NCBI RefSeq assembly: GCF_001429605.1
Contig: NZ_LMSS01000001.1
Span: forward strand, 309,469 to 373,468
Direction: 5' to 3'
Origin: Phycicoccus sp. Soil802
GTDB taxonomy: Bacteria > Actinomycetota > Actinomycetes > Actinomycetales > Dermatophilaceae
DNA length: 64,000 nt
Shown here: positions 18,472 to 26,006 of the stretch, piece by piece
Layout: each line of letters begins with the position of its first letter
Position numbering within the stretch: the stretch's first letter is position 1
Position numbers and translations under genes: made by a program
The notes under the pieces: model-generated
What the model was told of the DNA's origin: nothing
The model's input: only the letters and a program-made list of their open reading frames with translations
Database searches by the model: none

Positions 18472-19059
18472 TCAACGACGTGGTCCGGGCAGGGCGATGA
18501 CGCCTTCCGGCAGCGGCGGGAGGCCCGCGATGGTGCACAGCAGGTCGGACCAGGCGACCAGGTGGGCACCGACGTTGCCGGCCACCGGCGTCCACGAGGC
18601 GCGGACCTCCATCTCGACGCTGGCGGGGCGGTCGGACAGCCCCGCGAAGCTCTCGGAGACGACCCGGGTGACCGTGCCCGCCTCCGCGGTGTAGCCGAGG
18701 TGGTGGCTCTTCAGCGCATCGGTCAGCCACGACCACCCGACCGCCCCGAGCATCGGGTCGTTGGCCAGCTCTGGCTCGAGCTCGGCCCGGGCGAAGGTCA
18801 CCGCCCGCCAGGCGCCGTCCCAGGGGTCCGGGACCGACGGGTCGTGCAACAGCACGAACCGTCCTGAGGCGAGCTCGTCCTCGTCCGCAGCGGCACCGAC
18901 GACCTCGGCGGTGAGCGCCACGGCATACGGCGCGATGCGCTGGGGAGCGGGGACCTCGGTGAGGCGGATCTCGGGGCGCAGCCGCGCCCCGCGCAGGTCG
19001 CTGAGCGCCTGCGTGAACTCGGGAGATTGGTCGCCAGGGACCGTTCGGCTGCCCACCAT
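18472..19059 (-). CDS. DUF3000 domain protein
   Basis: 195 residues. Recognised as the actinobacterial DUF3000 family by the body from FTQALSDLRGARLRPEI through FVLLHDPSVPDPWDGAWR, LGAVGWSWLTDALK and HLVAWSDLLCTIAGLPP. Function unknown; no catalytic motif or membrane segment seen. ATG 19059 is chosen because the conserved region begins soon after. The frame is open further upstream but runs antisense into the neighbouring transporter. Found next to RNase D and hemE, an arrangement I recall as recurrent in actinobacteria. Confidence 0.85.
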   Translation of the reverse strand: MVGSRTVPGDQSPEFTQALSDLRGARLRPEIRLTEVPAPQRIAPYAVALTAEVVGAAADEDELASGRFVLLHDPSVPDPWDGAWRAVTFARAELEPELANDPMLGAVGWSWLTDALKSHHLGYTAEAGTVTRVVSESFAGLSDRPASVEMEVRASWTPVAGNVGAHLVAWSDLLCTIAGLPPLPEGVIALPGPRR

Positions 19060-23688: not shown

Positions 23689-24402
23689 ATGAGCGAGCCG
23701 CACCCCTCCAACCCGAACGCCGCCCGGATCCGCGAGATCAACGAGTCGATCCGCTACGCGATGTGGTCGGTGTTCGCGGTCACCGCCCCCCTGGGTGACG
23801 ACCGCGAGGTGATGGCCAAGGAGGTCGAGGAGCTCTTCGCGTCCCTCGAGGCGGACGGCGTCGTGACCCGTGGCGTCTACGACGTCGGTGGCCTGCGTGC
23901 CGATGCCGACTTCATGGTGTGGTGGCACGCGGAGCGGGTCGAGGACGTGCAGCGGGCCTACCGCGCCCTCCTGCGCACCGACTTCGGCCACCTGCTCGAG
24001 CCGACCTGGTCGGCGGCAGCGCTGCACCGGCCGGCGGAGTTCAACAAGAGCCACATCCCCGCGTTCCTCGCCGACGAGGCGCCCAAGGACTTCATCTGCG
24101 TCTACCCGTTCGTGCGGTCCTACGAGTGGTACCTGCTCCCGGACGCCGAGCGCCGTGACATGCTCCGTGAGCACGGCCAGCAGGCGCGCGACTTCCCCGA
24201 CGTGCGCGCCAACACGATCGCGTCGTTCGCGCTCAACGACTACGAGTGGATCCTGGCCTTCGAGGCGGACGAGCTGCACCGGATCGTCGACCTGATGCGC
24301 GAGCTGCGGGCGTCGAGGGCGCGGATGCACGTCCGCGAGGAGCTGCCCTTCCACACCGGTCGCCGGGTGGAGGTCGGCGAGCTCCTCGCCTCCCTGCGCT
24401 GA
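23689..24402 (+). CDS. hemQ: Coproheme decarboxylase (chlorite-dismutase family)
   Basis: 237 residues. Final step of the coproporphyrin-dependent heme pathway: decarboxylation of Fe-coproporphyrin III using hydrogen peroxide. Family marks: [55 protein letters not shown] with the conserved tyrosine, and the His of [15 protein letters not shown], expected to ligate heme iron. ATG 23689 follows GGGAGG and lies 5 bp after the hemG stop, so the pair is an operon. The ferrochelatase gene is not in the window. A large inverted-repeat element begins 12 bp after its stop. Confidence 0.96.
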
Positions 24403-24413
24403 CCCCTGCCCAG

Positions 24414-24490
24414 CTTTATCGGGTCTAGCAAGAAGGTTGACCCTCGCTACACTTCGGAACCGGTGTGCAGGTCAACCTTCCTGTGGAAAG
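24414..24490 (+). repeat. Left inverted repeat of a nuclease-gene element
   Basis: The outer 17 bp (CTTTATCGGGTCTAGCA, 24414-24430) recur exactly as the reverse complement at 25546-25562, and similarity continues imperfectly inward over about 75 bp. Within this copy GAAGGTTGACC (24432-24442) and GGTCAACCTTC (24470-24480) form an 11-bp stem. The two repeats bracket a single gene. Confidence 0.88.
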
Positions 24491-24584
24491 CCAGTTGTCC
24501 ACAGGTCTTGGGGACGCACCCAGTCCTCCACAGGCGCAGATCGGGGATGCGGCGGACTGTGATCCACCACAGCACCATGCCTGC

Positions 24585-25532
24585 ATGAACCCGCTCCTGG
24601 CCCCGCTCAGCACCCTCGAACACCAAGTGTTTACGACAAAGGAGGCGGCCAGCCGGGGCCTGACCCCTTTCGACCTGGTGCGACTGGTGAAAGCCGGGGA
24701 GCTCGAACATCTGGCCAGGGGGGTGTACGCGTTTCCGGGCGCCGAGGGTGAGCGGGCCGAGCAGCGACACCTGCGCCTCGCGGCCGGAGTATGCCGTCTC
24801 TACCCCGACGCGGTGTTGACGCACCACTCCGCAGTGTTGGCTCTCGGACTCCCGGTCTGGGGCGCGAACCTGTCGAAGGCGCACCTTGCGAGGAATGTTC
24901 CGGCCGAGCGGATCGCGCAGCACTGGGTGATCAGACCGCGGCCGCCCTGGCTCGAGCAGGTGAAGGGATCGGTGGGATCGTGCGCCTCGGTGGCGGCCAC
25001 CACCGTCCACCATGCTTTGGAAAGTGGAAGCGTGGCCGGCATCGTGGCAGCAGACTTCGCGCTGCATGAAAGGCGGATGACGGTGCCGGAACTGGAGGCG
25101 ATGGCGGCGCACGTGGCGGGTTGGCCACGCTCACACCACGTGACGACGATGTTGGCGCACATCGACGGCCGCAGCGAGTCGCCGGGCGAGTCGCGCCTGC
25201 GGGTCGACCTGTCGATGGCAGGCATCGACGTGGTCCCGCAGGTGACCATCACCGATGCGTCCGGAAAGTTTGTCGCCCGAGTCGACCTGCTGGTCCGCGG
25301 CACCAATGTGGTGATCGAGTTCGACGGATTGGTGAAGTATCGCGACCGCGGATTCGAAGCACTGGTGGCAGAGAAGGCGCGCGAGGACGAGCTGCGTCGT
25401 CTCGGCTTCGTCGTCCTTCGGTTCGTCTGGTCAGACTTGGCCAACCCTGGCCGGATCGTGCGACGGGTACGCGAGGCGATGGCTGCTTCCCCCCACAACG
25501 TTGACCTTCACCCCGGTTCCAAAGTGGGGTGA
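24585..25532 (+). CDS. AbiEi-like / DUF559 (Vsr-type endonuclease fold) protein
   Basis: 315 residues. The N-terminal part (LSTLEHQVFTTKEAASRGL, then LVRLVKAGELEHLARGVYAF) resembles the winged-helix domain of AbiEi-type antitoxins. The C-terminal part (RVDLLVRGTNVVIEFDGLVK, KAREDELRRLGFVVLRFVW) has the D-x-E/F-D-G and basic pattern of DUF559, a Vsr-like restriction-endonuclease fold, with probable metal-binding Asp/Glu in DLLV and IEFDG. Function untested; possible roles are a nuclease, a solitary regulator or a selfish gene. ATG 24585 is chosen because the conserved region starts there; the frame is open to 24465. Its last ten codons and stop lie inside a perfect 18-bp hairpin. No toxin partner is adjacent. 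Base composition is visibly less GC-rich at third positions than its neighbours. Confidence 0.7.
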   Translation: MNPLLAPLSTLEHQVFTTKEAASRGLTPFDLVRLVKAGELEHLARGVYAFPGAEGERAEQRHLRLAAGVCRLYPDAVLTHHSAVLALGLPVWGANLSKAHLARNVPAERIAQHWVIRPRPPWLEQVKGSVGSCASVAATTVHHALESGSVAGIVAADFALHERRMTVPELEAMAAHVAGWPRSHHVTTMLAHIDGRSESPGESRLRVDLSMAGIDVVPQVTITDASGKFVARVDLLVRGTNVVIEFDGLVKYRDRGFEALVAEKAREDELRRLGFVVLRFVWSDLANPGRIVRRVREAMAASPHNVDLHPGSKVG

Positions 25533-25562
25533 AGGTCAACGTTCCTGCTAGACCCGATAAAG
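25486..25562 (-). repeat. Right inverted repeat with 18-bp hairpin
   Basis: Reverse-complement partner of the repeat at 24414-24490. The outer 17 bp are identical. Inside it AACGTTGACCTTCACCCC (25497-25514) and 25526-25543 form a perfect 18-bp stem with an 11-nt loop, which includes the end of the nuclease-like gene. Confidence 0.88.
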
Positions 25563-25568
25563 GTGGGG

Positions 25569-26006
25569 TCAGGCGGGGGTGGCGTCCTTGGGGCGCATCG
25601 TCAGGCTGATGCTGTTGATGCAGTAGCGCTGGTCGGTCGGGGTGCCGTAGCCCTCGCCCTCGAAGACGTGCCCCAGGTGGCTGCCGCAGTTGGCGCACCG
25701 GACCTCGACCCGCTTCATGCCCATCGTGACGTCCTCGATGTACTCCACCGAGTCGCCGGCGAGCGGCGAGTAGAACGACGGCCAGCCGCAGTGGCTGTCG
25801 AACTTGGTGTCCGAGGTGAAGAGCTCCGCGCCACAGGCCCGGCAGGCGTAGACGCCCTCGGTCTTGGTGTCGGTGTACTCACCGACGTAGGGACGCTCGG
25901 TGCCGGCCTGGCGGAGCACCTGGTACTCGGCCGGGCTGAGCTCGGCGCGCCACTCCTCGTCGGTTTTGGACACGGCGTACGTGCGGTCGGTCTGCTCCAT
26001 GCTCAC
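25569..26006 (-). CDS. msrB: Peptide-methionine (R)-S-oxide reductase
   Basis: 145 residues; repairs methionine-R-sulfoxide in proteins. The zinc site is given by the CRAC and CANC pairs, substrate-binding residues by HCGWPSFYSPL, and the catalytic cysteine by the C-terminal RYCINSISL. GTG 26006 (two codons before ATG 26000) is chosen because GGAG lies 7 nt upstream. Convergent with hemQ; the inverted-repeat element fills the whole space between the two stop codons. Confidence 0.95.
   Translation of the reverse strand: MSMEQTDRTYAVSKTDEEWRAELSPAEYQVLRQAGTERPYVGEYTDTKTEGVYACRACGAELFTSDTKFDSHCGWPSFYSPLAGDSVEYIEDVTMGMKRVEVRCANCGSHLGHVFEGEGYGTPTDQRYCINSISLTMRPKDATPA

What the first reader, a model, noticed from the sequence alone, without database searches (positions are those of the whole stretch)
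24414..25562. Nuclease-like gene framed by long inverted repeats: candidate mobile unit
One AbiEi/DUF559-like gene is enclosed by about 75-bp inverted repeats with identical 17-bp outer ends. Each repeat contains its own hairpin (11 bp left; perfect 18 bp right, carrying the end of the gene). The 1.15-kb unit fits exactly between the stops of hemQ and msrB, and there is no transposase. This resembles a minimal selfish element in which a Vsr-fold nuclease could act on its own palindromic ends, inserting at intergenic terminator sites. I know of no described system with this exact layout.
Basis: partly seen in the sequence, partly recalled or inferred. Interest (0 to 1): 0.8.

Follow-up and report, generated by a model that had tools for sequence, protein, structure and literature searches.

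The report
Nuclease gene with matching palindrome family
A DNA-cutting-enzyme gene sits between two copies of a palindromic repeat that is scattered through the same genome, and related enzymes in other actinomycete bacteria mostly sit between palindromes of their own, which points to an undescribed kind of selfish or domesticated DNA element.

Summary
The unit (24414-25562) is an AbiEi-like + Vsr-fold nuclease gene between two palindromes. The palindrome is dispersed: 35 further intergenic places examined in this genome, no match in 10 same-genus genomes. Homologous genes are framed by long inverted repeats in 82 of 99 best-scoring same-family loci (7 of 2000 random spans) and 31 of 41 loci of other families (6 of 2000), palindromes mostly unalike between lineages. 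In the genus, two other palindromes occur only in genomes with a unit of that type. At shared sites both ends of a unit change together between species. The unit is absent beside hemQ in 10 of 10 relatives; one solo has an empty site in a relative, another sits where a relative has a full unit. A DnaA-box-like site lies upstream of the gene in 97 of 99 and 41 of 41 loci. My reading: a nuclease that copies and homogenises its own palindromes, working like RAYT/REPIN with an unrelated enzyme. The coupling is well supported; the biochemistry is inferred.

The parts
24414..24484 (.). left palindromic end: outer 12-bp terminal motif CTTTATCGGGTC (17 bp shared with the right end) plus hairpin; the inner arm lacks its terminal motif
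   Evidence: same family as 20 complete 85-bp solo copies
24495..24532 (+). twin DnaA-box-like sites TTGTCCACA (24495-24503) and TCCTCCACA (24524-24532), 29 bp apart
   Evidence: only same-orientation pair of 28-30 bp spacing in the window
24585..25532 (+). 315-aa protein: AbiEi antitoxin-like body (about residues 1-194) fused to a Vsr/homing-endonuclease-fold nuclease domain (about 197-304)
25497..25562 (.). right palindromic end: perfect 18-bp hairpin plus inverted terminal motif GACCCGATAAAG (25551-25562); carries the stop codon of the gene
23689..24402 (+). hemQ (chlorite-dismutase family), left neighbour, not part of the unit
25569..26000 (-). msrB, right neighbour, not part of the unit (upstream end approximate)

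Best explanation
This is a two-part DNA replicator. The autonomous part is a 1.15-kb unit: terminal motif and hairpin, DnaA-box-like pair, AbiEi-Vsr nuclease gene, hairpin and terminal motif. The non-autonomous part is a population of solo palindromes (85 bp in this genome). SHOWN: the anatomy, the dispersal, the matching of gene and palindrome by lineage, one empty solo site, a unit in one species where this genome has a solo, and coordinated change of both ends of a unit. INFERRED: the AbiEi-like body binds the palindrome arms through its winged helix, the Vsr-like domain nicks or cuts there (on duplex DNA or on a hairpin exposed at replication), and repair from another copy both homogenises the arms and now and then places a solo copy at a new intergenic site. 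Solos may also arise when recombination between the two hairpins of a unit deletes the gene. The DnaA-box-like pair may tie expression to replication.
For: Dispersal in own genome, no match in 10 same-genus genomes. Framing: 82 of 99 same-family loci vs 7 of 2000 random spans and 1 of 140 control genes; 31 of 41 out-of-family loci vs 6 of 2000. Gene-palindrome matching: a GCAAAACGG pattern taken from units occurs in exactly the 5 of 11 genomes whose unit carries it, with copies away from the unit in each; a second pattern, for which two genomes were named beforehand (note), is in exactly those 2 of 11; 11 of 11 Janibacter genomes with the orthologue have 6-37 matches, unit ends included. Coordinated change: syntenic pairs with proteins 50-60% identical have ends alike within a locus (55.4) and unlike between species (15.4), 20 of 20; at 60-70% identity 60 of 61. 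Empty site of one solo in G003, 2 bp against 106 bp. Unit in G005 where this genome has a solo (81% and 87% flanks). Mosaic arms: 113 of 136 site pairs show all four combinations. Nuclease fold: I-Bth0305I Z 12.4, Vsr Z 10.6; 14 residues invariant in 37 proteins, all in that domain. DnaA-box-like site: 97 of 99 and 41 of 41.
Against: No cut, nick or movement has been seen; everything is comparative. No target duplication could be read because flanks are too diverged. Orphan palindromes occur: 4 of 5 Janibacter genomes in which the orthologue was not found (E <= 1e-60) still have 4-12 matches; only G063 has neither. 17 of 99 and 10 of 41 loci score under 30, and 18 of 47. Proteins at non-syntenic sites seldom share a palindrome (8 of 242 pairs), so units rarely move as such or change palindrome quickly. 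No compensatory pairing is evident in solos; two arms of one element are no more alike than arms of different elements (0.765 vs 0.798). Coordinated change could come from selection by one binding protein rather than from gene conversion, and loci for one search were chosen for good framing. Mosaic arms could in part be repeated mutation.
Confidence: 0.6

Rival explanations
1. IS-like transposon: the nuclease is the transposase, the unit jumps by cut-and-paste or copy-and-paste with its palindromic ends as terminal inverted repeats, and the solos are MITEs.
For: Single gene in matched inverted ends, solos with the same ends, an empty solo site; no homologue beside hemQ in 10 of 10 relatives.
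Against: No transposase domain in the Pfam or NCBIfam scans; in this genome one gene was found with this palindrome (its three paralogues lack the terminal motif, and have other ends); many units of other lineages are syntenic; no target duplication seen.
Confidence: 0.15
2. Host-serving system: the nuclease and its palindromes are a domesticated repair, recombination or replication-linked function, and the palindromes are sites kept by selection.
For: Units kept at the same site between species, invariant nuclease residues, DnaA-box-like sites upstream, fixed 85-bp length and invariant ends in 20 solos.
Against: Palindrome sequence differs between species, and many genomes have no match at the thresholds used (151 of 186 family genomes have one at E <= 1e-25; 100 of 394 class genomes at E <= 1e-50); orphan palindromes.
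Confidence: 0.15
3. Passive terminators: the palindromes are bidirectional transcription terminators that insulate genes, and the nuclease is an ordinary gene that happens to lie between two.
For: 35 of 35 solo places are intergenic by my gene calls and 26 of 35 lie within 60 bp of a gene 3' end; strong hairpins.
Against: 82 of 99 nuclease loci framed against 1 of 140 other genes; palindrome type follows the nuclease; 6 of 35 solos lie between divergent genes.
Confidence: 0.05
4. Toxin-antitoxin or defence locus: the AbiEi part is an autoregulator, the palindromes are its operators, and the nuclease is the toxin or effector.
For: AbiEi fold (Z 10.3) and AbiEi models in PADLOC on the N-terminal part.
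Against: No partner gene between hemQ and msrB; palindromes lie on both sides of the gene and at 35 places away from it.
Confidence: 0.05

Closest known systems
RAYT / REP (REPtron, REPIN) systems
   Same: Single gene flanked by palindromic repeats that are also dispersed in intergenic DNA; cognate pairing of protein and repeat; doublets forming hairpins (PMC3116915 and PMC8266576: abstract and outline seen). Mostly vertical inheritance of RAYTs is recalled.
   Different: RAYTs are HUH Y1 proteins; here an AbiEi-like body with a Vsr-fold nuclease domain, no Y1 domain in the Pfam scan. Solos are about 70-85 bp with invariant terminal motifs.
Insertion sequence with MITEs
   Same: One gene between inverted ends, many short non-autonomous copies with the same ends
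   Different: No transposase found; ends are themselves palindromes; one gene found for this palindrome family in this genome; no target duplication seen
Vsr-fold (EDxHD, name recalled) homing endonuclease I-Bth0305I
   Same: Closest solved fold of the nuclease domain (3r3p, Z 12.4)
   Different: Not in an intron or intein; fused to an AbiEi-like body; framed by repeats
AbiEi antitoxin of type IV toxin-antitoxin systems
   Same: Residues 1-194 match 6y8q (Z 10.3, rmsd 6.5, 179 aligned)
   Different: No AbiEii partner beside it; carries a nuclease domain
Vsr / DUF559 mismatch endonucleases
   Same: Fold (1cw0 Z 10.6; 3hrl Z 11.6); Caulobacter VsrA carries DUF559 (PMC12907096, passages)
   Different: Framed by palindromes; invariant lysine (K251) where I recall a histidine in DUF559/Vsr
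Correia/NEMIS-like intergenic repeats (recalled)
   Same: About 100-bp intergenic palindromic repeats
   Different: No resident cognate nuclease is recalled for them

Membership tests
RAYT/REPtron | HUH Y1 transposase domain | tested here: not met
   Pfam scan at E <= 1 lists AbiEi_4, borderline DUF559 and three weak models, no Y1_Tnp; AbiEi and Vsr folds
RAYT/REPtron | gene flanked by, and genome sprinkled with, cognate palindromes | tested here: met
RAYT/REPtron | protein processes cognate single-stranded palindromes | not testable with these tools
   needs a bench assay
Insertion sequence | transposase gene | tested here: not met
   single gene, no transposase model in Pfam or NCBIfam scans
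Insertion sequence | terminal inverted repeats | tested here: met
Insertion sequence | target site duplication | tested here: inconclusive
   one empty solo site found but flanks diverged
Homing endonuclease | fold of a homing-endonuclease catalytic domain | tested here: met
   3r3p Z 12.4, rmsd 2.7, 97 aligned; a shared fold shows no function
Homing endonuclease | cuts the allele that lacks the element | not testable with these tools
   an allele without the unit exists; cutting untested
Type IV toxin-antitoxin AbiE | adjacent AbiEii toxin gene | tested here: not met
   gene stands alone between hemQ and msrB
MITE (for the solos) | short copies with the ends of an autonomous element and an empty site in a relative | tested here: met
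   (one site examined)

The most novel reading that the evidence does not exclude
A previously undescribed class of bacterial DNA replicator, spread across the class in which the window lies: an AbiEi-Vsr nuclease acts in place of a transposase on its own fast-evolving palindromes, copies and homogenises them genome-wide, and is expressed from a DnaA-box-like (or DNA-uptake-linked) promoter, so that each lineage carries its own nuclease-palindrome code.
Probability: 0.5. Interest if true: 0.92.

Novelty: categorically new. Interest (0 to 1): 0.85.

Why it matters
As far as I recall, copying of palindromic repeats in bacteria has been tied to HUH (RAYT) enzymes. A second, unrelated enzyme class with the same genome-wide habit would show that the strategy evolved more than once, would give a function to a common unstudied gene family (match in 100 of 394 class genomes sampled; 151 of 186 in the family), and would offer many natural nuclease-palindrome pairs for reading out how such an enzyme recognises its site. 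It also makes concerted evolution of dispersed short repeats in bacteria directly testable.

Tried and rejected
Rejected: chance inverted repeat. Structure-driven compensatory change: the pair table of 20 solos shows the arms varying independently. Conserved orthologous terminator at hemQ-msrB: no terminal motif within 1.5 kb of hemQ in 10 of 10 relatives. Gene location as the sole cause of the palindrome: at syntenic sites palindromes differ while left and right stay alike. PDB sequence search gave only weak Bax1 matches, E 0.86. Paralogue palindromes in own genome: the core of L023 is about fivefold over control, but in loci that were chosen for solos (35 in about 179 kb vs 16 in 400 kb), not pursued. 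Literature: ten searches, seen as listings with titles and starts of abstracts, on DUF559, AbiEi with palindrom, RAYT/REPIN/nuclease, REP in Actinobacteria, MTES1575, DnaA box, Tad pili, and AbiEi with terminal inverted repeats or homing endonuclease. Nothing listed appears to describe this pairing; some searches returned many loose matches and listed only the top 20-25; only (14 papers with DUF559; 4 papers) were listed in full. Subscription papers and preprints are mostly not held.

Rows dropped or chosen: homologue loci are the best-scoring matches, not a random sample (28 given, 60 picked by me from its list, 12, own unit included); one search used 99 of these 100 (L086 at a contig edge); the three own paralogues L022-L024 were kept out of the count. 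One search looked at 47 of the 80 loci (29 of 47 at score 30 or more; overlaps). One search used 41 of 46 (five clipped at contig ends; 26 given, 20 picked by me). Three weak own-genome matches (C5:31925, C4:244156, C4:316758) were not fetched. The 16 invariant residues of the 69-row alignment are not used, since one search found its loci by a motif that fixes five of them; the 37-row alignment is free of that choice.

Full report
WHAT IS THERE. Between hemQ (stop 24400-24402) and msrB (ends at 25569) lies a 1.15-kb unit: a gene for a 315-aa protein (24585-25532) between two inverted, palindromic ends. The outer 17 bp are identical; the right hairpin is perfect over 18 bp and holds the stop codon. 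The gene has weak codon adaptation (0.083 per codon against a median of 0.32 for 44 window genes) and 66.5% GC against 70.6% for the window.

THE REPEAT IS A DISPERSED FAMILY. The left end finds 67 matches at E <= 10 in its own genome and, as a 73-bp query, 48 matches at E <= 0.001 with none in 10 other genomes of the genus; a palindrome can match on both strands, so places are fewer than matches. I examined 35 places apart from the unit. Twenty complete copies of the main type are all exactly 85 bp without an indel, and the terminal 12 bp (CTTTATCGGGTC / GACCCGATAAAG) is invariant in all 40 arms; other copies are variant or one-ended. By my own approximate gene of 35 are intergenic (two touch a gene end by 15 bp), 26 lie within 60 bp of a gene 3' end (median 19 bp over the 29 with such an end) and 6 lie between divergent genes. 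Inner positions vary, but not as compensating pairs; two arms of one element are no more alike (0.765) than arms of different elements (0.798), and 113 of 136 informative site pairs show all four combinations. So the 42-bp arms look like a shuffled genome-wide pool, though repeated mutation can add to this. Single-strand DNA folds: solos -30.4 to -42.4 kcal/mol (z -9.6 to -15.1, three tested), window right end -23.6 (z -6.4), window left end only -13.5 (z -2.2).

THE LAYOUT IS GENERAL. Homologues (E <= 1e-30) occur in 9 of 11 genus genomes, and the 11 loci other than the window's show inverted repeats of 52-91 nt around the gene. As a test I scored the best inverted repeat across each gene: 30 or more in 82 of 99 same-family loci (12 of 12 in the genus), 7 of 2000 random spans, 1 of 140 control genes; with narrower flanks 0 of 11 hemQ loci reached 20. 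Outside the family: 31 of 41 against 6 of 2000, with family f34 12 of 12, f27 8 of 9, f36 3 of 4, f5 and f46 2 of 2 each, f48 1 of 1, f20 1 of 2, f11 2 of 6, f38 0 of 2 and f13 0 of 1. Loci were taken from the top of the match lists. Homologues reach Kribbella, Luteipulveratus and Antrihabitans; 2 of 8 Kribbella, 2 of 2 Luteipulveratus and 0 of 1 Antrihabitans loci examined score 30 or more. Palindrome likeness between loci is low (mean 9-14) for pairs of proteins under 60% identical and rises to 36 at 60-80%.

GENE AND PALINDROME GO TOGETHER. A pattern taken from units of five genomes (GCAAAACGGNNGTTGC...) occurs in exactly those five of 11, 4-16 hits each with some away from the unit in every one, and none in the other six; the reversed pattern gives none. 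For a second pattern I named G006 and G007 beforehand; it was found only there, 5 hits each, unit ends included. In Janibacter (genus g27; G077 identified by the contig length 892,834 shared) the unit palindrome of G077 has matches in 15 of 16 genomes, most in G077 itself (37), where several are 90-96% identical. The orthologue is found (E <= 1e-60) in 11 of 16; all 11 have matches (6-37, unit ends included). I had predicted that G063, with no match, lacks the gene, which held; but four other genomes without it keep 4, 5, 8 and 12 matches, so orphan palindromes exist.

CONCERTED CHANGE. Among 106 pairs of units with like flanks on both sides, ends within a locus stay alike while ends between species drift apart: protein identity 50-60%, 55.4 against 15.4, within greater in 20 of 20; 60-70%, 59.8 against 36.2, 60 of 61; 70-80%, 63.0 against 52.6, 17 of 20; over 80%, 56.0 against 72.7, 0 of 5. 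Loci were preselected for score 30 or more, which inflates the within value but not the fall of the between value. Pairs share loci, so they are not independent. Replacement of one unit by another at a favoured site could explain the most distant pairs; gene conversion, or common selection by one binding protein, explains the closer ones. Of 242 pairs at unlike sites 8 share a palindrome.

PRESENCE, ABSENCE AND EXCHANGE. With eight nuclease queries no homologue (E <= 1e-3), and no terminal motif, lies within 1.5 kb of hemQ in 10 of 10 relatives. In G009 hemQ and msrB abut with a gap of 15 bp, and G004 has another reading frame there. One solo site examined is empty in G003: 2 bp where this genome has 106 bp; G004 has 46 bp of other sequence there. 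The closest homologue of the window protein (57% identity) lies in G005 next to an RNase J-like gene (named by eye), and this genome carries a solo at that site (flanks 81% and 87%); a second such case is G158 unit L144 and own solo L030 (76% and 87%). These are two sites among 98 other unit loci compared with 36 own loci plus the window. A solo is what recombination between the two hairpins of a unit would leave, so unit-to-solo decay is a live option beside copying.

A THIRD CONSERVED PART. In the 160 bp upstream of the gene lies TCCACA (or its complement), mostly in gene orientation (148 against 11) with consensus [TC][TC]GTCCACAG, in 97 of 99 same-family and 41 of 41 out-of-family loci; 60 of 99 and 19 of 41 have two or more, and the commonest spacing is 28-30 bp (55 and 13 cases). 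A pair at 28-30 bp is present in 50 of 82 framed and 5 of 17 unframed same-family loci. In 130-bp stretches the site was upstream in 96 of 99, downstream in 6 of 99, and in 49 of 1000 random stretches. The high-affinity DnaA box of M. tuberculosis and S. coelicolor is given as TTGTCCACA (PMC4285127, Table 1, passages read). Such pairs are rare elsewhere: 3 in 700 kb of control sequence and 1 in 800 kb of own genome. DnaA binding is not shown.

THE PROTEIN. AlphaFold model pLDDT 94.8, pTM 0.91 from 69 sequences. Residues 197-304 match homing endonuclease I-Bth0305I (Z 12.4, rmsd 2.7, 97 aligned), a DUF559-type protein (3hrl, Z 11.6; family name recalled) and Vsr (Z 10.6); residues 1-194 match AbiEi antitoxin (Z 10.3, rmsd 6.5, 179 aligned). 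Fourteen residues are invariant in 37 proteins, all in the nuclease domain, among them E198, E202, D234, D247, K251, E263 and K264, which argues for a working active site; which of them are catalytic is not tested.

MECHANISM. I think the AbiEi body recognises the arms, the Vsr-like domain nicks or cuts there, and repair or replication from another copy homogenises the pool and sometimes adds a solo between genes. Coupling of nuclease and palindrome I hold at about 0.9; the copying mechanism at about 0.6. It works like RAYT/REPIN but is not a member, since no HUH enzyme was found; it is not an IS as defined (no transposase found) and not an AbiE toxin-antitoxin pair (no partner). Ten full-text searches listed no description of this pairing (limits under Tried and rejected).

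Noticed in passing
L156:15240-15275 and 18790-18825; L160:16515: The rare twin TCCACA boxes also precede a Tad/Flp-like pilus operon (T2SSE ATPase by Pfam; small DUF4244 protein that I take for a pilin) and, in L160, a gene that looks AbiEi-like by eye (no Pfam match). In Micrococcus luteus tad clusters are described as essential for transformation (PMC8467076, passages), so nuclease units might share a promoter type with DNA uptake genes.
   Followed up: partly
own genome G000:C5:245778 (L388): The only twin box in 800 kb of own genome precedes an ORF that I take from memory for deoxyribose-phosphate aldolase; Pfam on its first 150 residues found nothing.
   Followed up: partly
L022, L023, L024: Three more distant paralogues of the nuclease in the same genome lie between inverted repeats of other sequences (35, 38 and 59 nt), so one genome may hold several nuclease-palindrome pairs; not tested against chance.
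   Followed up: partly
L291, L293, L295, L297, L299, L304, L312, L314, L334, L335: In two other families (f27, f5) different units share a terminal motif around TGATCAcGTTCA, a possible conserved recognition site.
   Followed up: no
L017, L033, L034, L036, L037, L039, L042: One-ended copies in own genome: one terminal motif, then hairpin, with no second terminal motif; possibly half units or a second subfamily.
   Followed up: no
L044, L041, L043, L032; L175; L113, L126, L087: A 20-25 bp mini-palindrome around CGGGT(C/G)ACCCG forms the outer end of some copies in own genome, in Lapillicoccus and, in a related form, in Janibacter and other units.
   Followed up: no
L256 (G004): At the site that holds a solo in this genome, G004 has a short array of GCGCGGCTG-like repeats.
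   Followed up: no
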